DNA from: Liolophura sinensis
Taxonomy: Eukaryota; Mollusca; Polyplacophora; Chitonida; Chitonidae
Direction of reading: 5' to 3'
NCBI RefSeq assembly: GCF_032854445.1
Contig: NC_088301.1
Location: 4,203,703-4,267,702 of the forward strand
DNA length: 64,000 nt
Below are positions 12,101-58,105 of this stretch, in pieces; position 1 is the stretch's first letter; each line of letters opens with the position of its first letter. Made by a program: the position numbers and the translations under genes. The notes below the pieces were generated by a model, which had not been told where the DNA came from, did not search any database, and worked only from the letters and a program-made list of their open reading frames with translations.

Positions 12101-15100
12101 CAACTGAATGTTACATGTGTTTTACAGATCAATCGTTCTCCAAGTTTTGGTACTGATGAGAAGATAGATTTTGATATCAAATCTGGTGTAATCGAAGATG
12201 CTCTCAGACTGTTGAATATCAAGTAAGTGCTGTAATACGTGGTTTGAAATTTTGAAATCTACATTTTTATACATCAGTCATGATGATGAAGTCATTTGAA
12301 TGGGGTTTTTTTTTGTTTCTTTCACAAGTACATGTATATCCTTGAAGTTGAGATGAAATGTGACAGAAGAGTTATCTTGTTTTTACCGTCTGTTCAAGAA
12401 TTTGCAGCTTTTCCATCAGACTTTTCATAGTATGAATCAGTTTTCGATTTGCTTAACATTTCTTTTCTCATTCAAATGATTCTAAGAAATGTAAAGAAAT
12501 TCAAATTGTGGTAAAATGTATTTAAGTATAATTAGCTTTGTTTTCTTCCTTAGACCTACTGATAAGAAGCGAAATTTAGCTAGACAGAAAGCTGAGGCTC
12601 AGAAGAGGCTATTGCGACCCTCAAAAAGATCCGAGATGAGTGGCGACTTGTCTGAGGCTGAGAAAAAAAGGCTGAGTTTAGAGAAGAGGAAAGAAGAATT
12701 GGTGAGTTTAATAGTGGCTACAGTAGAAGAAGCTTGATAGCTGAATCACCATTCCCTGAGTCTTGTGGGCCCAAAACACTTTTTCTGATATAGAAAGATC
12801 CATTTAGTAACATATTCATAAAATCTTAGTTTTTGTTATTTGTAGAAAGACCTTCTTAGCCGAATCAGGAAAAATGCCGCTCGTGAAGAGTTTGAGAACA
12901 AACACAGTGGTGGTTTCCGGCGAATCTTTCCAACAGCAGATCGTCACTGCCAGGAGATGTACACCAGGCTTATTATGACTTCGTTTCAAACTTTCCTGTC
13001 AAGTCGCGCAGCTTCCATGCAGCGGGAGATTGAGCTGGTCTACAACAACAAACTACGGGTGAGCATAGACAGGTGACAGAGAGGGAATAATAGTGATGGT
13101 ATCGTCACCTGTAGCTACGGGAGAGTGTAGACAGGTGACAGAGAGGGAATGATAGCGATGGTATCATCACTTGTATCTACAGGAGAGCGTAGACAGGCGA
13201 CAGAGAGGGAATAATAGTGATGGTATCATCACCTGTAGCTACGGGTGAGTATAGACAGGTGACAGAGAGGGAATGATGGTGATGGTATCGTCACCTGTAG
13301 CTATGGGTGAGTATAGACAGGTGACAGAGAGGGAATGATGGTGATGGTATCGTCACCTGTAGCTATGGGAGAGTGTAGACAGGTGACACTGAGGGAATAA
13401 TAGTGATGGTATCATCACCTGTAGCTACGGGTGAGTACAGACAACCGACGGAGAGGGAATGATAGTGATGGTATCATCACCTGTAGCTACGGGTGAGTAT
13501 AGACAGGCGACAGAGAGGGAATGATAGTGATGGTATCATCACCTGTAGCTACGGGTGAGTACAGACAACCGACAGAGAGGGAATGATAGTGATGGTATCA
13601 TCACCTGTAGCTACGGGAGAGTGTAGACAGGCGACAGAGAGGGAATAATGGTGATGGTATCGTCACCTGTAGCTACGGGAGAGTGTAGACAGGCGACAGA
13701 GAGGGAATGATAGTGATGGTATCATCACCTGTAGCTATGGGTGAGTACAGACAACCGACAGAGAGGGAATGATAGTGATGGTATCGTCACCTGTAGCTAT
13801 GGGAGAGTGTAGACAGGTGACAGAGAGGGAATGATAGTGATGGTATCATCACCTGTAGCTACGGGTGAGTATAGACAGGCGACAGAGAGGGAAAGATGGT
13901 GATGGTATCGTCACCTGTAGCTATGGGAGAGTGTAGACAGGTGACAGAGAGGGAATGATAGTGATAGTATCATCACCTGTAGCTATGGGTGAGCGTAGAC
14001 AGGCGACAGAGAGGGAATAATAGTGATGGTATCGTCACCTGTAGCTACGGGAGAGTGTAGACAGGTGATAGAGAGGGAATGATAGCGATGGTATCATCAC
14101 CTGTAGCTACGGGTGAGTATAGACAGGTGACAGAGAGGGAATAATAGTGATGGTATCGTCACCTGTAGCTACGGAAGAGTGTAGACAGGTGACGGAGAGG
14201 GAATAATGGTGATGGTATCGTCACCTGTAGCTACGGGTGAGTGTAGACAGGTGACACTGAGGGAATGATAGCGATGGTATCATCACCTGTAGCTATGGGT
14301 GAGCGTAGACAGGCGACAGAGAGGGAATAATGGTGATGGTATCGTCACCTGTAGCTACGGGAGAGTGTAGACAGGCGACAGAGAGGAAATAATAGTGATG
14401 GTATCGTCACTTGTAGCTACGGGAGAGTGTAGACAGGTGACAGAGAGGGAATAATGGTGATGGTATCGTCACCTGTAGCTACGGGAGAGTGTAGACAGGT
14501 GACAGAGAGGGAATGATAGCGATGGTATCATCACCTGTAGCTACGGGTGAGTATAGACAGGTGACAGAGAGGGAATAATAGTGATGGTATCGTCACCTGT
14601 AGCTACGGAAGAGTGTAGACAGGTGACGGAGAGGGAATAATGGTGATGGTATCGTCACCTGTAGCTACGGGTGAGTGTAGACAGGTGACACTGAGGGAAT
14701 GATAGCGATGGTATCATCACCTGTAGCTATGGGTGAGCGTAGACAGGCGACAGAGAGGGAATAATGGTGATGGTATCGTCACCTGTAGCTACGGGAGAGT
14801 GTAGACAGGCGACAGAGAGGAAATAATAGTGATGGTATCGTCACTTGTAGCTACGGGAGAGTGTAGACAGGTGACAGAGAGGGAATAATGGTGATGGTAT
14901 CGTCACCTGTAGCTACGGGAGAGTGTAGACAGGTGACAGAGAGGGAATGATAGCGATGGTATCATCACCTGTAGCTATGGGTGAGTATAGACAGGTGACA
15001 GAGAGGGAATGATAGCGATGGTATCATCACCTGTAGCTATGGGTGAGCGTAGACAGGCGACAGAGAGGGAATAATGGTGATGGTATCGTCACCTGTAGCT

Positions 15101-18100
15101 ACGGGAGAGTGTAGACAGGCGACAGAGAGGAAATAATAGTGATGGTATCGTCACTTGTAGCTACGGGAGAGTGTAGACAGGTGACAGAGAGGGAATAATG
15201 GTGATGGTATCGTCACCTGTAGCTACGGGAGAGTGTAGACAGGTGACAGAGAGGGAATGATAGCGATGGTATCGTCACCTGTAGCTATGGGAGAGTGTAG
15301 ACAGGTGACAGAGAAGGAATGATAGTGATAGTATCATCACCTGTAGCTATGGGTGAGCGTAGACAGGCGACAGAGAGGGAATAATAGTGATGGTATCGTC
15401 ACCTGTAGCTACGGGAGAGTGTAGACAGGTGATAGAGAGGGAATGATAGCGATGGTATCATCACCTGTAGCTACGGGAGAGTGTAGACAGGTGACAGAGA
15501 GGGAATGATAGTGATGGTATCATCACCTGTAGCTATGGGTGAGTATAGACAGGTGACAGAGAGGGAATGATAGTGATGGTATCATCACCTGTAGCTGCGG
15601 GAGAGTGTAGACAGGTGATAGAGAGGGAATGATAGTGATGGTATCATCACCTGTAGCTGCGGGTGAGTATAGATAGGTGACGGAGAGAGAATGATAATGA
15701 TGGTATCATCACCTGTAGCTACGGTGAGTACAGACAGGCGACAGAGAGGGAATGATGGTGATGGTATCGTCACCTGTAGCTACGGGAGAGTGTAGACAGG
15801 TGACAGAGAGGGAATGATAGTGATGGTATCATCACCTGTAGCTACGGGTGAGCACAGACAGGCAACAGAGGGGGAATGATAGTGGTGGTATATCATCACC
15901 TGTAGCTACGGGAGAGTGTAGACAGGCGACAGAGAGGGAATGACAGTGATGGTATCATCACCTGTAGCTACGGGTGAGTATAGACAGGCGACAGAGAGGG
16001 AAAGATGGTGATGGTATCGTCACCTGTAGCTATGGGAGAGTGTAGACAGGTGACAGAGAGGGAATGATAGTGATAGTATCATCACCTGTAGCTATGGGTG
16101 AGCGTAGACAGGCGACAGAGAGGGAATAATAGTGATGGTATCGTCACCTGTAGCTACGGGAGAGTGTAGACAGGTGATAGAGAGGGAATGATAGCGATGG
16201 TATCATCACCTGTAGCTACGGGTGAGTATAGACAGGTGACAGAGAGGGAATAATAGTGATGGTATCGTCACCTGTAGCTACGGAAGAGTGTAGACAGGTG
16301 ACGGAGAGGGAATAATGGTGATGGTATCGTCACCTGTAGCTACGGGTGAGTGTAGACAGGTGACACTGAGGGAATGATAGCGATGGTATCATCACCTGTA
16401 GCTATGGGTGAGCGTAGACAGGCGACAGAGAGGGAATAATGGTGATGGTATCGTCACCTGTAGCTACGGGAGAGTGTAGACAGGCGACAGAGAGGAAATA
16501 ATAGTGATGGTATCGTCACTTGTAGCTACGGGAGAGTGTAGACAGGTGACAGAGAGGGAATAATGGTGATGGTATCGTCACCTGTAGCTACGGGAGAGTG
16601 TAGACAGGTGACAGAGAGGGAATGATAGCGATGGTATCATCACCTGTAGCTACGGGTGAGTATAGACAGGTGACAGAGAGGGAATAATAGTGATGGTATC
16701 GTCACCTGTAGCTACGGAAGAGTGTAGACAGGTGACGGAGAGGGAATAATGGTGATGGTATCGTCACCTGTAGCTACGGGTGAGTGTAGACAGGTGACAC
16801 TGAGGGAATGATAGCGATGGTATCATCACCTGTAGCTATGGGTGAGCGTAGACAGGCGACAGAGAGGGAATAATGGTGATGGTATCGTCACCTGTAGCTA
16901 CGGGAGAGTGTAGACAGGCGACAGAGAGGAAATAATAGTGATGGTATCGTCACTTGTAGCTACGGGAGAGTGTAGACAGGTGACAGAGAGGGAATAATGG
17001 TGATGGTATCGTCACCTGTAGCTACGGGAGAGTGTAGACAGGTGACAGAGAGGGAATGATAGCGATGGTATCATCACCTGTAGCTATGGGTGAGTATAGA
17101 CAGGTGACAGAGAGGGAATGATAGCGATGGTATCATCACCTGTAGCTATGGGTGAGCGTAGACAGGCGACAGAGAGGGAATAATGGTGATGGTATCGTCA
17201 CCTGTAGCTACGGGAGAGTGTAGACAGGCGACAGAGAGGAAATAATAGTGATGGTATCGTCACTTGTAGCTACGGGAGAGTGTAGACAGGTGACAGAGAG
17301 GGAATAATGGTGATGGTATCGTCACCTGTAGCTACGGGAGAGTGTAGACAGGTGACAGAGAGGGAATGATAGCGATGGTATCGTCACCTGTAGCTATGGG
17401 AGAGTGTAGACAGGTGACAGAGAGGGAATGATAGTGATAGTATCATCACCTGTAGCTATGGGTGAGCGTAGACAGGCGACAGAGAGGGAATAATAGTGAT
17501 GGTATCGTCACCTGTAGCTACGGGAGAGTGTAGACAGGTGATAGAGAGGGAATGATAGCGATGGTATCATCACCTGTAGCTACGGGAGAGTGTAGACAGG
17601 TGACAGAGAGGGAATGATAGTGATGGTATCATCACCTGTAGCTATGGGTGAGTATAGACAGGTGACAGAGAGGGAATGATAGTGATGGTATCATCACCTG
17701 TAGCTGCGGGTGAGTATAGATAGGTGACGGAGAGAGAATGATAATGATGGTATCATCACCTGTAGCTACGGTGAGTACAGACAGGCGACAGAGAGGGAAT
17801 GATGGTGATGGTATCGTCACCTGTAGCTACGGGAGAGTGTAGACAGGTGACAGAGAGGGAATGATAGTGATGGTATCATCACCTGTAGCTACGGGTGAGC
17901 ACAGACAGGCAACAGAGGGGGAATGATAGTGGTGGTATATCATCACCTGTAGCTACGGGAGAGTGTAGACAGGCGACAGAGAGGGAATGACAGTGATTGT
18001 ATCATCACCTGTAGCTACGGGTGAGTATAGACAGGTGACAGAGGGGGAATGATAGTGATGGTATCATCACCTGTAGCTACGGGTGAGTATAGACAGGTGA

Positions 18101-21100
18101 CAGAGAGGGAATGATAGTGAGTGAGTAAGTGAGTGCTTGGGGTTTAACGTCGTACTCAACAATTTTTCAGTCATATGACGACGAAGGAATCTTTAGGGTG
18201 CGTGTACGTGTAATGTGCCTCCTTGTAGCAGGACGGATTTCCACCGCTCTTTTATTTAGTGCTGCTTCACTGAGACGACTTACCGAAGGCAAGTAAGCCA
18301 CCCTGCTCGAGCCATTATACTGATACGGGTCAACCAGTCGTTGCACTATCCCCTTCATGCTGAACGCCAAGCGAGGAAGTTACAATTTCCTCTTTTAAAG
18401 TCTTAGGTGTTACTCGATCAAGGATTGATCCGGGATCTACCGGTCCCGAAGCGGACGCTCTACCGACTGTGCTATCCGGGCCAGTCTGGAATGATAGTGA
18501 TGGTAGCTACTGGTGAGTACAGACAGCCGACGGAGAGGGAATGATAGTGATGGTATCATCACCAGTAGCTACGGGTGAGTATAGACAGGTGACAGAGAGG
18601 GAATGAGACTGATTGTATCATCACCTGTAGCTACGGGTGAGTACAGACAACCGACGGAGAGGGAATGATATTGATGGTATCATCACCTGTAGCTACGAGT
18701 GAGTATAGACAGGTGACAGAGAGGGAATGAGACTGATTGTATCATCACCTGTAGCTACGGGTGAGTACAGACAACCGACAGAGAGGGAATGACAGTGATG
18801 GTATCATCACCTGTAGCTACGGGTGAGTATAGACAGGTGACAGAGAGGGAATGATGGTGATGGTATCGTCACCTGTAGCTATGGGAGAGTGTAGACAGGT
18901 GACAGAGAGGGAATGATAGTGATGGTATCATCACCTGTAGCTATGGGTGAGTATAGACAGGTGACAGAGAGGGAATGATGGTGATGGTATCGTCACCTGT
19001 AGCTATGGGAGAGTGTAGACAGGTGACAGAGAGGGAATGATAGTGATGGTATCATCACCTGTAGCTGCGGGTGAGTATAGACAGGTGACAGAGAGGGAAT
19101 GATAGTGATGGTATCGTCACCTGTAGCTACGGATGAGTACAGACAGGCGACAGAGAGGGAATGATGGTGATGGTATCGTCACCTGTAGCTACGGGAGAGT
19201 GTAGACAGGCGACAGAGAGGGAATGATAGTGATGGTATCACCACCTGTAGTTACGGGAGAGTGTAGACAGGCGACAGAGAGGAAATAATAGTGATGGTAT
19301 CGTCACTTGTAGCTACGGGAGAGTGTAGACAGGTGACAGAGAGGGAATAATGGTGATGGTATCGTCACCTGTAGCTACGGGAGAGTGTAGACAGGTGACA
19401 GAGAGGGAATGATAGCGATGGTATCATCACCTGTAGCTATGGGTGAGTATAGACAGGTGACAGAGAGGGAATGATAGCGATGGTATCATCACCTGTAGCT
19501 ATGGGTGAGCGTAGACAGGCGACAGAGAGGGAATAATGGTGATGGTATCATCACCTGTAGCTGCGGGAGAGTGTAGACAGGCGACAGAGAGGGAATGATA
19601 GTGATGGTATCACCACCTGTAGTTACGGGAGAGTGTATAGACAGGTGACAGAGAGGGAATAATATTGATAGTATCATCACCTGTAGCTACGGGTGGTATA
19701 TTAGTTATGGTTGATGCAGTTAGTAACGTGTGGTTAAGTTGGTCAAGGATGGCTGAAGTGCGGGGTGGTATGGTAAATGTAAGTATTGGATGGTACAGTT
19801 TGTAATGAATGGTAAAAGTTACAAGGGATGGTACAATATTTTGAGAACAGTATTGCCCAGGATAGTGGAATTTGTAATCATTGGTACAGGAAGTTATATA
19901 TTTAGAGGATGATATGGTAAGTATAAATGTATACATCAACTTGGTGATGGTACAAGAAGTTAGGCCCTGGCATGGATGATTCTGGTATGGGTGAGATGAG
20001 ACACAGATTGTTTGATATGGTTAGTAATAGATGGTTCAGAAGTACATATTGGTATGATTGATAGCGTACAGTTTTTGGCTGAGGTACTGTGTATCGTCTG
20101 CGTGCAGTGTTTCCAGTTGTTAAATGTTTTGGTATGTAATTATTCTGACAGGAGCAGCAGGTCCTAGACATGTTGGCAGAATGCCAGACGGACGATGAGA
20201 AATGCTCCCAGTCTTATCAAAGCAGAGACCCGAAGGTAAGTTCATTTAATTATTTATTTATTATATTATTTATGTTTAATACCATACTGAAGGCTATTTG
20301 ACTTATACGATTACAGTTCAAGAACCTTGATAATGGATGCATGTATACACATGTAAGACTGCAGATGAATGTGTGCTGGAAAGAAAGGTGTTTAGGGATA
20401 CAGTAACGGTCAGGGTGTTACTCGGCAGCATATTCATTAAAGCCATTTCTCACTTGAAATACATTCTGTAAACCTTATTTTTGCATGGGCTCTAGATATT
20501 AAAATTTTGGCTATTTAAAATGTGTTAATATTTCAACTTCCAGTACCAAAAACAGTATGTAAAGCATTGTGACAAGATTTTAACTTTGAGCAATTTCTCT
20601 GAATAACCTTAATTATTAATAAAACAAAAAGAGACTAAATCTCAGAAAATTTCAGTGCTATATTTTCTGCTGTGCACTAATCAAACATTTCATGGGAAAG
20701 GTTGATGCGCCACAGAGCCCTTTTTCCGAAGACCTGTTAGTAATCACACAGCCTGACTTGTATTGCAGCCTTTGTCCAGCATGCCCTCCATTGCGCCACA
20801 GCCTGAATATAATGAGGATGACGATGATGATTTTGATGAAGATGATGATGATGATGATGTGGCTCCACAGAAGCCTCGCAGGGGGCAGGCACATAAATAT
20901 GGCCTTTATCCTGGGTCAGCCCTCTCTGCCTCCAGACAGACACAGCAAAAGGCCACTGCCACTCGCTCCCGTCCTAACTCTGCCCAGCGGCCGTTGTCAG
21001 GGCGACCAGAGTCAAGGCCACTCAGTCAGGCATCACGATCAAGGTCTGTGGGCAGAGTATCAAAACCAGCACCTGTTATTCCCAATATGGTTTGTATTGC

Positions 21101-24100
21101 ACTTTCTACTTCTTAAATTTTGTTTTAACTTTATACCATATATCAAATTTGAACTGTTATTGTCAGATGTTTATTTTTAAATATGGTAATTATTCATTGT
21201 AGTGTTCACTAAAAAAAAAAAAAAATCAGTATTCTGAAGTGTACATTTTTGCGTACATGATCAAGAATACAACTCATCCCGACTTCTGCAAACAGAAGCC
21301 CATGCAATTGTAAACCTTTGGACAGCCTTATTTAGTGTGATTTTTTGTCTTCGTGCCAGCCAGATACATGTATTCTATGGAGTGTTGTTTTCAGAAGTAG
21401 CCAGATACACATACTATATAGAGTGTTCTTTTCGGCATCCATCCAGATATACATACTATATAGAGTGTTGTTTTCTGAAGCCAGCCAAATACACATACTA
21501 ATTACTATGCAGAGTGTTGTTTTCTGTAGCCAGCCAGATACATACATGGAGTATTGTTTTCTGTAGCCAGCTACATACACATACTATATAGAGTGTTGTT
21601 TCTGTAGCCAGCCATATAGATGTACTCTATGGAGTGTTGTTTTCTGTAGCCAGCCAGATACACATACTACATGGAGTGTTGTTTCCTGTAGCCAACCAGA
21701 TACACATACTGTATGGAGTGCTGTTTCCTGTAACCAGCCAGATACACATACTATATGGAGTGTTGTTTCCTGTAGCCAACCAGATACACATACTGTATGG
21801 AGTGCTGTTTCCTGTAACCAGTCAGATACACATACTATATAGAGTGTTGTTTTCTGTAACCAGGCAGATACACATACTCTATAGAGTGTTGTTTTCTGTA
21901 ACCAGCCAGATACACATATTAAACAGAGTGCTTTTTGTTGTAGCCAGCCAGATACATGTATTCTGTGGAGTGTTGTTTCTGTAGCCAGCCACATACACAT
22001 ACCATATAGGACTGTTGTTTTCTGTAGCCAGCCAGATACACGTACTGTATGGAGTGTTGTTTCTGTAGCCAGCCAGATACATATATTCTATGGAGTGTTG
22101 TTTTCTGTAGCCAGCCAGATACACATACTGTATGGAGTGTTGTTTTCTGTAGACAGCCAGATACACATACTCTGTAGAGTGTTGTTTTCTGTAGCCGGAC
22201 AGATACACATCCTAAACAGATTGTTGTTTTCTGTAGTCAGCGAGATACACATACTAAACAGAGTGTTATTTTCTGTAGCCATTCAGATACATTTGCTGTA
22301 TGGAGTGTTGTCTGTATGCAGGAGGACCCTCTGGCAGTGTTGAGAGAGGAAGAGCTCGCTGAGAAAACGCTTCTCGCTCTGAACGATATGCGCATCAAAT
22401 TCCCAGGGAAAAACGACAGTGAGGCAGAGTGGATACTGGATAAGGTAAACTGACCTCATGTATTTCTGCAGAGGAAGCCAGTATAAGCTGGACTTTAACT
22501 CACAGAGACCACATTGTGCCCATTGTGGTGAGAAGGTCTGTGCCCAAGTGGTTAGCTTGCTCAAGCGCAGCATGATGACTCACAAATGTATGGTGTCAAT
22601 GGATAGTTTGTTGATAACCGCAAGAGAATACTTCTTTAGATGCCCAAGTGAATATATTTATTTTAAACACTTTTGTCAACAATGAGTGTTAAGTGAATAG
22701 TTAGAGAGTGAATGGTGGAAATGGAGGAAGAGGGCTAGCACTGGTAATAGGAAGAATAGGGCTAGCACTGGTAATAGAAGGAATATGGTTAGCACAGGTA
22801 ATAGAAGGAATAGGGTCAGTGCTGGTAATAGAAGGAATAAGGCTAGCACTGGTAATAGGGAGAATAGGGTCAGTGCTGGTAATAGAAGTAATAGGGCTAG
22901 CACTGGTAATAGGAGGAATAGGGTTAGCACTGGTAATAGGAGGAATAGAGTCAGCGTTGGTAATAGAAGGAATAGGGCTAGCACAGGTAATAGAAGGAAT
23001 GGGGTCAGTGGGTAATTGGACGAATAGGGTCTTTGGGTATTAGCAGGGATAGGGTTAGCTGTGATAATAGAAGGAATAGGATCAGTGGGTAATTGGAGGA
23101 ATAGGGTCAGTGGGTAACAGAAGTAATAGGGCTAGCACTGGTAATAGGAGGAATAGGGTCAGTGGGTAACAGAAGGAATAGGGTTAGCACAGATAATAGG
23201 AGGAATAGGATCAGTGGGTAACAGGAGGAATAGGGTCAGTGGGTAACAGGAGGAATAGGGTCAGTGCTGGTAATAGGAGGAATAGGGTCAGTGGATAACA
23301 GGAGGAATAGGGTCAGTGGGTAACAGGAGGAATAGGGTCAGCAGGTAACAGGAGGAATAGAGGGTCAGTGCTGGTAATAGGAGTGAGTGAGTGAGTGCTT
23401 GGGGTTTAACGTCGTACTCAACAATTTTTCAGTCATATGACGACGAAGGAATCATTAGGGTGCATGTACGTGTAGTGTGCCTCCTTGGTGCAGGACGGAT
23501 TTCCACCGCTCTTTTATTTAGTGCTGCTTCACTGAGGCGCCTTACCGAAGGCAAGTAAGCCGCCCCGCCCGAGCCATTATACTGATACGGGTCAACCAGT
23601 TGTTGCACTATCCCCTTCATGCTGAACGCCAAGCGAGGAAGTTACAACTTCCTCTTTTAAAGTCTTAGGTGTGACTCGATCAAGGATTGATCCTGGATCT
23701 ACCAGTCCCGAAGCGGACGCTCTACCAACTGTGCTATCCGGGCCGGTTGCTGGTAATAGGAAGAATAGGGTCAGTGGGTAACAGGAGGAATAGGGTTTGT
23801 GGGTAACAGGAGGAATAGGGTCAGTGCTGGCAACAGGAGAAATTGGGTCAGTGGGTAACAGGAGGAATAGGGTTTATGGGTAATAGGAGGAATAGGGTCA
23901 GTAGCCAGTCAGATGTTGAATGGAGGAATCCAAATGGATGATTCTGCATAGACAGACTGTGTTATCATTAAGTGTACATGTATGTATCTGGTAATTTGAT
24001 TAAGTTTATAGAATGTTTGGTTGTGCATGTTTGGGGGCAGTGTATGGATAAATTGAACAGGATTCAGTTCGGAAAGTGACAGTTACCGTAATTCTTCATT

Positions 24101-54183: not shown

Positions 54184-54324
54184 CTATATCATAATAACCC
54201 AAAAGACCACGGCCTCTCCAGACCCGTTGTCCCGACATGCGGTTCATAGGCCTGTAGGACTATACAATATACAGGGACTTGGCAAGACGGTTGTTTTCCC
54301 CCGGCATCTATATAAAATGTGCCT

Positions 54325-57300
54325 AATTTACCTTCATATAGATATAAAGTACAACATCCATACGGAGGACGGTGGCTATTTTAACTTCCTGCAGGTATAC
54401 AGTACAACATCCATGAGGAGGACGGTGGCTAATTTAACTTCCTGCAGGTATCAGGTACAACATCCACAAGGTGGACGGTGGCTAATTTACCTTCCTACTG
54501 TTATAAGGTAGAACATCCACGAGGAGGACGGTGACTAATTTACCTTTCTGCAGGTGTGATGTACAACATCCACGAGGAGGACGGTGGCTAATTTACCTTT
54601 CTGCAGGTGTGAAGTACAATATCCATGAGGAGGAAGGTGACTAATTTAACTTCCTGCAGGTGTAAAGTACAACATCCACGAGGAGGACGGTGACTAATTT
54701 ACCTTTCTGCAGGTGTAAAATACAACATCCACGAGAAGGACGGTGACTAATTTACCTTTCTGCAGGTGTAAAGTACAACATCCATGAGGAGGACGTTGGC
54801 TAGTTTACTTTCCTATAGGTATAAAGTACAACATCCACGAGGAGGACGGTGGCTAATTTACCTTCCTCCAGGTATCAGGAACAACATCCACGAGGAGGAC
54901 GGTGGGTGATTTACCTTCCTGCAGGTATAAAGTACAACATCCACGAGGAGGACGGGGACTAATTTACCTTCCTCCAGGTATCAAGAACAAAATCCACGAG
55001 GAGGACGGTGGATGCTTTACCTTCATATAGTTATAAAGTACAACATCCACGAGGAAAACGGTGGCTAATTTACCTGCCTATAGGTATAAAGTACAACATC
55101 CACATGGAAGACGGTGGCTAGTTTACATCCCTATATGTATAAAGTACAACATCCACGAGGAGGACGGTGGATAATTTACCTTCCTGCAGGTATAAAGTAC
55201 AATATCCACGAGGAGGACGGTGACTAATTTATGTTCCTATAGGCATAAAGTACAACAACCACGAAGCGGACGGTGACTAATTTAACTTCCTGCAGGTGTA
55301 AAGAACAACATCCACGAGGAGGACGGTGGCTAATTTACCTTTCTGCAGGTGTAAAGTACAACATCCACGAGAAGGACGGTGACTAATTTACCTTTCTGCA
55401 GGTGTAGAGTACAACATCCATGAGGAGGACGGTGGCTAGTTTACTTTCCTATAGGTATAAAGTACAACATCCATGAGGAGGACGGTGACTAAATTACCTT
55501 TCTGCAGGTGTAAAGTACAACATCCATGAGGAGGACAGTGACTAATTTACCTTTCTGCAGGTGTAGAGTACAATATCCACAAGGAGGACGGTGGCTAATT
55601 TACCTTCTGCAGGTGTGAAGTACAACATCTATGAGGAGGACGGTGGCTAACTTACCTTTCTGCAGGTGTGAAGTACAACATCCATGAGGAGGACGGTGGC
55701 TAATTTACCTTTCTGCAGGTGTGAAGTACAACATCCACGAGGAGGACGGTGGCTAATTTACCTTTCTGCAGGTGTAAAGTACATCATCCACGAGGAGGAC
55801 GGTGACTAATTTACCTTTCTGCAGGTGTAAAGTACAACATCCACGAGGAGGACGGTGGCTAATTTAACTTCCTGCAGGTGTAAAGTACAACATCCACGAG
55901 GATGACGGCGGCTAATTTACCTTCCTGCAGGTGTGAAGTACAACATCTATGAGGAGGACGGTGGCTAATTTACCTTTCTGCAGGTGTGAAGTACAACATC
56001 CACGAGGAGAACGGTGGCTAATTTACCTTTCTGCAGGTGTGAAGTACAACATCCATGAGGAGGACGGTGGCTAATTTACCTTTCTGCAGGTGTAAAATAC
56101 AACATCCACGAGGAGGACGGTGACTGATTTACCTTCCTGCAGGTGTAAAGTACAACATCCACGAGGAGGACGGTGACTAATTTACCTTTCTGCAGGTGTA
56201 AAGTACAACATCCACGAGGAGGACGGTGACTACCTTTCTGCAGGTGTAAAATACATCATCCACGAGGAGGACGGTGACTAATTTATGTTCATATAGTCAT
56301 AAGGTACAACAACCACAAAGCGGACGGTGACTAATTTATGTTCCTGTAGGTATAAAGTACAACATCCACGAGGCTATAGCTATAAAGTACAACATCCACG
56401 AGGAGGACGTTGGCTACTTTACCTTCCTATAGCTATAAAGTACAACATCCACGAGAAGGACGGTTGCTAATTTACCTTACTGCAGGTATCAGGTACAACA
56501 TCCACGCGGAGGACGGTGGCTACTTTACCTTACTGCAGGTATCAGGTACAACATCCGTGAGGAGGACGGTGGCTAATTTAACTTCCTGCCGGTATAAGGT
56601 ACAACGTCCATGAGGAGGATGGTAGCTAATTAACCTTCCTGCAGATATAAGGTACAGCATCCACGAAGAGGACGGTAGCTAATTTAACTTCCTGCAGGTG
56701 TAAAGTACAACATCCACGAGGAGGACGGCGGCTACTTTACCTTTCTGCAGGTGTAAAGAACAACATCAACAAGGAGGACGGTGACTAATTTACCTCCCTA
56801 TAGATATAAAGTACAACATCAACAAGGAGGAAGGTGGCTAATTTACCTTACTATAGGTATAAAATACAACATCCATGAGGAGGACGGTGGCTAATTTACC
56901 TTCCCCCAGGTGCCAGGCACATCATCCACGAAGAGGACGGTGGCTAATTTAACTTCCTAGAGGTAAAATGTACAACATCCCCTAGGAGGACGGTGCCTAA
57001 TTTACCTTCCTACAGGTATCAGGAACAACATCCACGAGGAGGACGGTGGGTAATTTACCTTCCTGCATGTATAAAGTACAACAACCACGAGGAGGAGGGT
57101 GGCTAATTTACCTTCCTCCAGGTATCAGGGACAACATCCACGAGGAGGACGGTGGATGCTTTACCTTCATATAGTTATAAAGTACAACATCCACGAGGAG
57201 GACGGTGGCTAATTTACCTTCCTGCAGGTATAAAGTACAAAATCCACGAGGAGGACGGTGGCTAATTTACCTTTCTCCAGGTATCAGGAACAACATCCAC

Positions 57301-58105
57301 GAGGAGGACGGTGGTTGCTTTACCTTCCTATAGGTATATAGTATAACATCCACGAGGAGGACGGTGACTAATTTATGTTCCTATAGGCCTAAGGTACAAC
57401 ACCACGAAGCGTACGGTGACTAATTTATGTTCCTGCAGGCATAATGTACAACATCCACGAGGCTATAGCTATATTGTACAACATCCACGAGGAGGACAGT
57501 GGCTAATTTATCTTCCTATTGGTATAAAGTACAACATCTATGAGGAGGACGGTGGCTAATTTACATCCATATAGGTATAAGGTACAACATCCACGAGGAG
57601 GACGGTGACTAATTTACATCCCTATAGGTTTAAAGTACAACATTCATGAGGAGGACGGTGGCTGATTTACCTCCCTGTAGGTATAAGGTACAACATCCAC
57701 AAGGAGGACGGTAGCTACCTTACCTTACTATAGGTTTAAGATACAACATCCACGAGGATGACGGTGACTAATTTATGTTCCTGCAGGTATAAAGTACAAC
57801 ATCCATTAGGAGGACGGTGGCTACTTTACCTTTCTATAGCCATAAAGTACAACATCCACGAGGAGGACAGTGGGTAATTTATCTTCCTATATAGGTATAA
57901 AGTACAACATCCACTAGGAGGACGGTGGCTAATTTACATCCCTATAGGTTTAAAGTACAAAATCCATGAGGAGGACGGTGGCTAATTTACATTCCTGCAG
58001 GAATAAAGTACAACATCCATAAGGAGGACAGTGGTTAATTGACGTTCCTATAGGTATCAGGTAAAAAATCCACGAGGAGGACGGTGACTAATTTACCATC
58101 CTTTT
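54325..58105. repeat. 53 bp minisatellite, about 71 copies
   Basis: Unit: 'ggtataaagtacaacatcca', 'cgaggaggacggtggctaat', 'ttaccttcctgca'. Copies vary by a few percent, and some units (e.g. near 56361 and 57450) are rearranged. Each unit contains a pyrimidine tract and CAG (ttaccttcctgcag), then 30 bp, then a GT (gacg|gtgact). The array ends at the pyrimidine tract and CAG acceptor of the candidate exon at 58115. Confidence 0.95.

What the first reader, a model, noticed from the sequence alone, without database searches (positions are those of the whole stretch)
13053..19690. TTLL7 intron 10 minisatellite begins at the exon 10 donor and repeats that donor about 100 times
Exon 10 ends CTACGG and the intron starts gtgagc. 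The 62 bp unit contains CTACGG followed by gtgagt/gtgagc, or by the inactivated variant gagagt, so the array appears to have been seeded at the splice junction itself. Many units therefore offer a decoy donor. Each unit also has cacctgtag just before CTACGG. How the true donor is chosen, and whether the decoys cause variable inclusion of intron sequence, is open. The mix of GT and GA variants could reflect selection against decoys.
Basis: partly seen in the sequence, partly recalled or inferred. Interest (0 to 1): 0.8.

Follow-up and report, generated by a model that had tools for sequence, protein, structure and literature searches.

The report
Intron repeat born at splice junction
In a mollusc gene, a short stretch straddling the end of one exon was copied about a hundred times into the following intron, leaving about 47 look-alike splice sites behind the real one; similar repeats turn up at splice junctions of other genes sampled from this genome, a thing that the papers I could find describe from a few lancelet genes.

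Summary
A 62-bp array (TRF 13053-19693) fills most of TTLL7 intron 10 and starts 6 nt inside exon 10; 100 full units can be read, and a two-unit query found matches only here in the 609-Mb genome. Of 99 intronic donor copies 47 keep GT, 27 of them scoring at least as high as the real donor; 52 are dead. The GT/GA split gives no sign of selection: other unit positions vary as much, the A allele is linked to one neighbouring variant in 50 of 51 units, and copies spread in blocks up to an exact 1,479 bp.

Outside the window, junction-spanning arrays appear in 10 of 29 other loci sampled in the same genome (TTL 4/10, kinesin 4/15, myosin 2/4), at donors and acceptors; nine rest on exons with some homology support, one (L008) on an open frame alone. 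They match the 'mirage' minisatellites of lancelets. The species is a mollusc. Strictly, 4 of 22 bounded intronic arrays span a junction: 0.83 expected if finished arrays fall at random, 2.40 if founding duplications do. Random duplication plus splicing tolerance largely suffices. Decoy use is untested.

The parts
12846..13058 (+). TTLL7 exon 10; last 6 nt (CTACGG) are the first 6 nt of the repeat array
   Evidence: Open 16-exon reading frame with GT-AG introns; TTLL7 identity
13059..13064 (+). true donor gtgagc (CGG|GTGAGC), PWM score 8.46
13053..19693 (+). 62-bp splice-junction minisatellite, 100 full units; typical unit CTACGG + G(T/A)GAG ... CACCTGTAG; ends with a partial copy CTACGGGTG
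13074..13076 (+). in-frame TGA met after five intronic codons if exon 10 were extended to a downstream decoy donor
13245..13250 (+). nearest decoy donor that keeps GT (gtgagt, unit 4, 186 nt downstream); units 2 and 3 are dead (GA)
13836..15314 (+). block repeated exactly (1,479 bp) 2,109 bp further on (15945-17423): recent block duplication inside the array
18128..18486 (+). SINE-like insertion in the array (ends set by me), flanked by a 13-bp direct repeat GGAATGATAGTGA
   Evidence: direct repeat read from the sequence
20152..20235 (+). TTLL7 exon 11 (alternative start 20155 also in frame)
21355..22311 (+). 42-bp array in intron 12 that runs to 10 nt before the exon 13 acceptor; typical unit carries TTTTCTGTAG, a decoy acceptor: probable acceptor-side counterpart, not counted

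Best explanation
This is a junction-spanning ('mirage') minisatellite. A local tandem duplication took in the last 6 nt of exon 10, its donor and about 56 bp of intron, and then expanded by repeated block duplication to about 100 units. The extra copies lie downstream of the real donor, so they are intronic and the mature mRNA need not change. The founding mutation could persist because splicing can remove it. The first donor probably wins through exon definition: exon 10 has its own acceptor 213 nt upstream, the nearest live decoy would make a 399-nt exon, and the unit's own acceptor-like site is weak. Extension to a decoy would meet a stop after five codons. The GT/GA mix is drift of one mutation carried along by block copying. 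The process is not peculiar to TTLL7: the gene regions of this mollusc that I sampled are dense in minisatellites, and those whose founding duplication crossed a donor or an acceptor leave arrays of this kind. Shown: array, exon overlap, decoy scores, stop codon, block duplication, other genes. Inferred: the order of events, use of the first donor, neutrality.
For: Array and gene structure; locus-private unit. A test on 122 junctions asked for at least 3 further copies within 3 kb of a 24-mer made of 6 exonic and 18 intronic nt, at 18 of 24 identities: 5 junctions pass, shuffled 24-mers give 0.0; leaving TTLL7 out, 4 of 92. Further junction arrays read by eye: L005, L008, L013, L017 and L026 donors, L003 and L006 acceptors. 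Ten of the 11 other junction arrays hold about 7 to 38 nt of exon. Exons backed by a domain hit or tblastn: L003, L005, L014, L023, L026, L028. Checked afterwards: L006 exon is TTL (Pfam E 6.5e-6), L013 exon matches KIF3A (E 8.5e-18), L017 only weakly a kinesin (E 0.0016, E 0.01), L008 no match. Decoy donors: 47 of 99 with GT, 27 of them at or above the true score. Decoy acceptor 3.7 against 5.3-11.8 for the 15 true acceptors of the gene. Neutral GT/GA pattern. Lancelet precedent, where RT-PCR results suggest undisturbed splicing (PMC3087553, passages).
Against: No RNA, no second haplotype and no related species were available. The exonic part here is only 6 nt and the last G of it is expected at most donors. 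With a stricter first setting (12 exonic nt, 19 of 24) 3 of 122 junctions pass and TTLL7 does not; windows 45 and 150 nt inside the introns recur more often than junctions (6 and 17 of 122) and exon-internal windows 1 of 122. An older array with a unit donor adopted by a deletion that fused exon and array would look the same in this intron. In vitro work on duplicated donors (recalled, not looked up) shows that the donor nearer the acceptor can win, which would favour the far decoys. The two CTACGGGTG copies that bound the array are not explained by a plain duplication.
Confidence: 0.82

Rival explanations
1. Donor capture: the array arose elsewhere in the intron and happened to carry a donor-like motif; a deletion then joined exon 10 to the array and a unit's motif became the working donor, so exon 10's last 6 nt come from the array.
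For: Only 6 exonic nt are shared and nothing further upstream is homologous. A donor-like site is not rare in arrays: for the TRF consensus (which is of the GA type, so the score is for another site on either strand) 25 of 100 dinucleotide shuffles do as well.
Against: In 10 of 11 other junction arrays the units hold about 7 to 38 nt of exon, mostly from recognised TTL, kinesin or myosin exons, which is hard to derive from the array. Finished arrays placed at random would touch a junction 0.83 times among 22 strictly bounded arrays, against 4 seen (summed).
Confidence: 0.08
2. The decoy array has a function: it tunes TTLL7 output through decoy donors or poison pseudo-exons, or gathers U1 snRNP on a 7-kb intron, and the GT/GA mix is kept by selection.
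For: 47 GT decoys, 27 at least as strong as the true donor. Extensions would add a stop and all three frames of the unit are closed, a possible switch. The unit carries an AG six nt before the donor motif.
Against: 6 of 9 donor columns and 36 of 62 columns are variable (counted). GA looks like one origin. Decoy acceptors are weak. Copies spread in recent blocks. Junction arrays occur in unrelated genes with unrelated units, as expected of mutation rather than of a TTLL7 control.
Confidence: 0.05
3. Splice junctions are preferred birthplaces of minisatellites in this genome (targeted seeding), not random places that splicing tolerates.
For: 4 of 22 strictly bounded arrays span a junction against 2.40 expected from random founding positions; 6 of 25 against 2.60 with three hand-bounded rows added. 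Among 72 arrays 14 carry a donor score of 8 or more against 7.3 in shuffles, some of them pieces of one array.
Against: The strict excess is within chance, and the wider count includes introns added because they held an array. Acceptor enrichment is slight: 27 against 22.7. Intron-internal windows recur more often than junction windows.
Confidence: 0.12
4. Assembly artefact: copy number and block structure are inflated by misassembly.
For: An exact 1,479-bp internal repeat; reads were not available.
Against: The 100 units fall into 48 distinct haplotypes and the array holds a SINE with a direct repeat at its ends. Copy number does not bear on the junction overlap.
Confidence: 0.04

Closest known systems
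'Mirages': minisatellite-like tandem duplications of exon-intron boundaries in lancelets (globin genes BflGb6 and BflGb9, Adh3; also TnC and PGBD5) - PMC3087553 and PMC3902484, passages seen
   Same: Tandem arrays span a splice junction at the donor or acceptor side, carry AG/GT signals in many but not all units, show concerted evolution with outlying edge copies. The authors' results suggest that regular splicing is not disturbed.
   Different: Mollusc, not cephalochordate. About 100 units of 62 bp against 6 and 3 units of 150-160 bp in the two BflGb6 haplotypes; half the donors dead, nearly all through one allele. Here 10 of 29 other sampled loci of one genome show it; the passages seen name a handful of lancelet genes and suggest it may be general there.
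[quoted passage not shown] only the title seen, in the reference list of PMC2572611; paper not held)
   Same: A minisatellite whose units are splice donors.
   Different: By its title the extra donors are provided to the transcript; here use of decoys is unknown and extension to them would hit a stop after five codons. Unit length and copy number of IFI6 were not checked.
Intron gain by tandem genomic duplication of AGGT-bearing segments (PMC4974935, PMC3443670; titles and abstract starts only)
   Same: Tandem duplication of a segment with splice signals, tolerated because splicing removes the copy.
   Different: There (as recalled) the duplication makes a new intron inside an exon; here it lengthens an existing intron.

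Membership tests
Mirage minisatellites (exon-intron boundary tandem repeats) | Tandem array physically spans or abuts an exon-intron boundary | tested here: met
   Array starts at 13053, exon 10 ends at 13058
Mirage minisatellites (exon-intron boundary tandem repeats) | Unit contains exon-terminal sequence joined to the splice signal | tested here: met
   24-mer with 6 exonic nt recurs 47 times near 13059, shuffles 0.0; with 12 exonic nt it recurs 19 times at 17 of 24 identities but fails the setting; beyond 6 nt homology is not significant
Mirage minisatellites (exon-intron boundary tandem repeats) | Many but not all units keep the splice signal | tested here: met
   47 of 99 decoys keep GT
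Mirage minisatellites (exon-intron boundary tandem repeats) | Regular splicing is not disturbed | not testable with these tools
   No RNA data; only the predicted consequence of decoy use is known
Mirage minisatellites (exon-intron boundary tandem repeats) | Length instability between alleles or tissues | not tested
   One haplotype only; recent block duplication is indirect support
IFI6-type minisatellite donors | Extra donors are used in transcripts | not testable with these tools
   No RNA
Intron gain by tandem duplication | A new intron arose at this position | not tested
   Needs orthologous gene structures from related animals; none found among the collections offered

The most novel reading that the evidence does not exclude
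In this mollusc, tandem expansion of splice junctions is a major, continuing way in which introns grow, favoured at the junctions themselves, and the resulting banks of tens of donors or acceptors per intron are partly used, so that array length tunes gene output through stop-containing isoforms.
Probability: 0.1. Interest if true: 0.8.

Novelty: new member of a known kind. Interest (0 to 1): 0.5.

Why it matters
Each such intron is a natural competition experiment: up to tens of donors of predictable strength behind one real donor, in several genes of one genome. That lets rules for splice-site choice (order, exon definition, strength) be tested with ordinary long-read RNA. It also shows that junction minisatellites, known to me in print from a few lancelet genes, are frequent in a sample of mollusc genes, and gives a simple account of intron growth: tandem duplications that cross a junction can persist because the spliceosome can remove them.

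Tried and rejected
Selection against decoys: rejected on position-wise variation, linkage and largely intact decoys in two other arrays. Gradient of dead decoys near the exon: the first two are dead, probability about 0.28. Longer exon-unit homology: not significant. Dispersed repeat family: no match outside the locus. SINE preference for arrays: 4 of 14 BLAST rows touch an array against 66,371 of 354,000 bp in arrays, not pursued. An earthworm metallothionein paper (PMC12783039, passages) has intronic minisatellites, but the passages do not place them at junctions. A Conus intron paper (PMC3862624, two passages) speaks of di- to tetranucleotide repeats, not junction arrays.

Weak points of my own counts. 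The L014 acceptor was re-set by hand to the last unit (automatic choice lay 106 bp upstream, in the array). Four myosin donors, L028:1275 among them, were added by hand. In one search the L026 intron and the first L028 intron (two arrays) were bounded by hand; the strict figure drops these three rows (22 arrays, 4 spanning, 2.40 expected from random founding, 0.83 from random placement; my sums). Arrays outside the 35 well-supported kinesin introns and in myosin introns that could not be bounded were left out of that test. L009 (donor) and TTLL7 intron 12 (acceptor) are probable and not counted. Junction arrays at L003, L005, L006, L008, L013, L017 and L026 were recognised by eye. L008's exon has no match in Pfam or PDB and L017's only weak ones. 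Loci: 10 of the 11 TTL loci outside the window, 15 kinesin loci and 4 myosin loci with many domain hits, out of more places (a tied myosin locus on C8 was not taken).
Full report
WHAT IS THERE. The window lies in a 609,464,459-bp genome (contig C7:4203703-4267702). The genome belongs to a mollusc: the molluscan haemocyanin beta-sandwich family (PF14830) matches eight times in tandem on C8 (that the family is mollusc-specific is recalled). The gene is TTLL7: a translation from exons 6-7 matches TTLL7 of PDB 4YLR at E 2.3e-80, and 16 exons give an open frame of 871 codons with GT-AG introns, with 3-nt acceptor alternatives at exons 11 and 13. Intron 10 is 13059-20151. A 62-bp minisatellite runs from 13053 to 19693, starts 6 nt inside exon 10, and is interrupted by a SINE of about 359 bp. 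One hundred full units can be aligned. A two-unit query lists 47 matches, none outside 13053-19686 (that search skips very common words, so this is a strong hint, not proof).

DECOYS. Of 99 full intronic units 47 keep GT and 52 do not. With a weight matrix (recalled frequencies) the true donor CGG|GTGAGC scores 8.46; 27 of the 47 decoys score at least that, and 35 at least the median (7.6) of 50 reference donors (15 of this gene, 35 of the kinesin loci). Duplex energies with the recalled U1 5' end agree: -10.4 for the true donor, -13.4 for CGG|GTGAGTAT. The acceptor-like site before CTACGG scores 3.7; the 15 true acceptors of TTLL7 score 5.3 to 11.8. Extending exon 10 into the intron reads V-S-I-D-R-stop, and all three frames of the unit are closed. 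So the array offers strong donors without good acceptors, and use of a decoy would truncate the protein and probably trigger decay of the RNA (inference).

GT AGAINST GA. GT 48, GA 47, AA 4, AT 1 over 100 units with the true donor; over 48 distinct unit haplotypes GT 25, GA 21, AA 1, AT 1. Position +2 has entropy 1.00; so has +46, and +16, +31 and +7 have 0.96, 0.96 and 0.93. Six of nine donor columns vary, 36 of 62 overall (counted). A at +2 goes with G at +7 in 50 of 51 units; the exception, the unit at 19623, holds a 2-bp insertion that makes its alignment ambiguous. That looks like one mutation. It spread with blocks: the array holds an exact 1,479-bp repeat at offset 2,109 and exact 474-bp repeats at offsets 434, 1,675 and 2,543. 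No selection need be assumed. In two other arrays the decoys are largely intact (L005: 35 of 37 pattern matches GTAAGT; L008: 12 of 12, or 12 of 13 with a looser pattern).

THE SAME THING IN OTHER GENES. To test whether the junction overlap is chance I fetched 29 loci of 10 kb: ten other TTL loci, then 15 kinesin and four myosin loci picked by number of domain hits before looking for arrays. Donor arrays: L005 (TTL exon ..VEESI|GTAAGT, 43 bp x 39, starts at the donor), L008 (..SFKDYQ|GTGAGT, 100 bp x 12, 14 exonic nt; open frame only, no homology match), L013 (..VIDNFIPPEYQ|GTAAGC, KIF3A-like exon, E 8.5e-18; about 32 nt, not all identical), L017 (..RRKLHNSIQELK|GTGAAC, weak kinesin matches; about 28), L026 (myosin..SNAIPAVVG|GTAAGT, about 11), L028 twice (16 nt each). 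Acceptor arrays: L003 (about 38 exonic nt), L006 (about 30; TTL exon, E 6.5e-6), L014 (about 7), L023 (15). That is 4 of 10 TTL, 4 of 15 kinesin and 2 of 4 myosin loci. I counted none in L001, L002, L004, L007, L009 (probable only), L010, L011, L012, L015, L016, L018-L022, L024, L025, L027, L029; these loci hold exons that I did not map, so cases may be missed.

MECHANICAL TEST. Over 122 inferred junctions (30 of TTLL7, 92 others) 5 have a 24-mer (6 exonic, 18 intronic nt) that recurs at least three more times within 3 kb at 18 of 24 identities: TTLL7 donor 10, L014, L023 and two in L028; shuffled 24-mers give 0.0; other settings give 4 or 5. At the strictest setting tried (12 exonic nt, 19 of 24, two copies) 3 of 122 pass and TTLL7 does not. 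Windows 45 nt inside exons recur in 1 of 122, 45 nt inside introns in 6 and 150 nt inside introns in 17: arrays are commoner inside introns than at their ends.

TARGETED OR RANDOM? Arrays take up 66,371 of 354,000 bp looked at. If finished arrays fell anywhere in their introns, 0.89 of 25 should reach within 10 bp of a junction; if founding units fell at random, also across junctions, 2.60 should span one; 6 do. Without three rows bounded by hand the figures are 4 of 22, 0.83 and 2.40; for kinesins alone 2 of 16, 0.40 and 1.32. Random placement of finished arrays is a poor fit; random founding is not rejected. Splice motif content of 72 array consensuses is mildly raised: donor score of 8 or more in 14 against 7.3 in shuffles, acceptor score of 6 or more in 27 against 22.7, with some arrays counted in pieces.

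HOW IT PROBABLY WORKS. A tandem duplication that crosses a donor leaves the old donor in place and puts the copy downstream; one that crosses an acceptor puts the copy upstream. In both cases the extra copies can be treated as intron, so the mutation can drift and grow by unequal exchange. The real TTLL7 donor is probably picked by exon definition with the acceptor 213 nt upstream and by being first transcribed; the nearest live decoy (13245) would make a 399-nt exon. This is inference. Published competition experiments with duplicated donors (recalled) can favour the donor nearer the acceptor, so the question is real and testable.

WHAT IS KNOWN. Lancelet genes have such arrays, called mirages; the globin paper reports donor- and acceptor-side cases, RT-PCR results that suggest undisturbed splicing, length differences between haplotypes, and a proposal for intron gain (PMC3087553, abstract and section 16 passages). 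The PGBD5 paper adds TnC and PGBD5 (PMC3902484, one passage). A human case is known by title only. My searches for minisatellites with splice donors, exon-intron boundaries, mirages or molluscs showed no mollusc case of this kind; they cover open-licence papers only, two lists were capped (10 of 2,945, 20 of 26), and most listed papers were not opened. The one mollusc paper listed, on Conus introns, mentions short simple repeats in the two passages seen. So this is a new member of a known kind, with far more units than the lancelet globin examples in the passages seen, and part of a pattern that recurs across three gene families of this genome.

Noticed in passing
window 21355-22311 and 22322: A 42-bp array in TTLL7 intron 12 runs to 10 nt before the exon 13 acceptor; its typical unit carries a decoy acceptor TTTTCTGTAG. 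Probable acceptor-side mirage in the same gene.
   Followed up: partly
window 13053-13061 and 19687-19695: The array is bounded on both sides by CTACGGGTG, 9 bp. A plain duplication does not explain why the single-copy ancestor would have had this 9-mer twice, 62 bp apart.
   Followed up: no
L008 1981-2683 against 519-1729: Next to the donor array of this locus lies a second array whose reverse complement carries much the same exon-end and donor sequence (CTGGTGGCT..CAAGG..TTACCAGTAA): an inverted junction array.
   Followed up: partly
window 54319-58102: A 53-bp array of about 70 units with TTTACCTTCCTGCAG|GTGTAAAGTACAACATCCACGAGGAGGACG; the acceptor score is high (0, 0 and 4 of 100 shuffles reach it in its three pieces). 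It may be another junction array; no exon was identified.
   Followed up: partly
L011 7973-8953, 9297-9581, 9708-9972 (minus strand): A 51-bp array with a very strong donor in its consensus unit (GAG|GTGAGTAT, score 11.2) but no exon found beside it in the stretches read.
   Followed up: partly
window 18128-18486 and 23390-23744: Two copies (95% alike) of one SINE family sit inside or between pieces of two different arrays of the same gene; the first has a 13-bp direct repeat at its ends.
   Followed up: partly
window 20152/20155 and 22322/22325: Exons 11 and 13 each have two acceptors 3 nt apart that both keep the frame (NAGNAG type).
   Followed up: no
G000 C1:26642195-26642299 and 26643291-26643386: Two neighbouring myosin hits match the same profile stretch (118-152 and 121-152): perhaps alternative exons of a muscle myosin.
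   Followed up: no
G000 C8:37880506-37891931: One haemocyanin region with eight functional-unit beta-sandwich domains in 11.4 kb.
   Followed up: no
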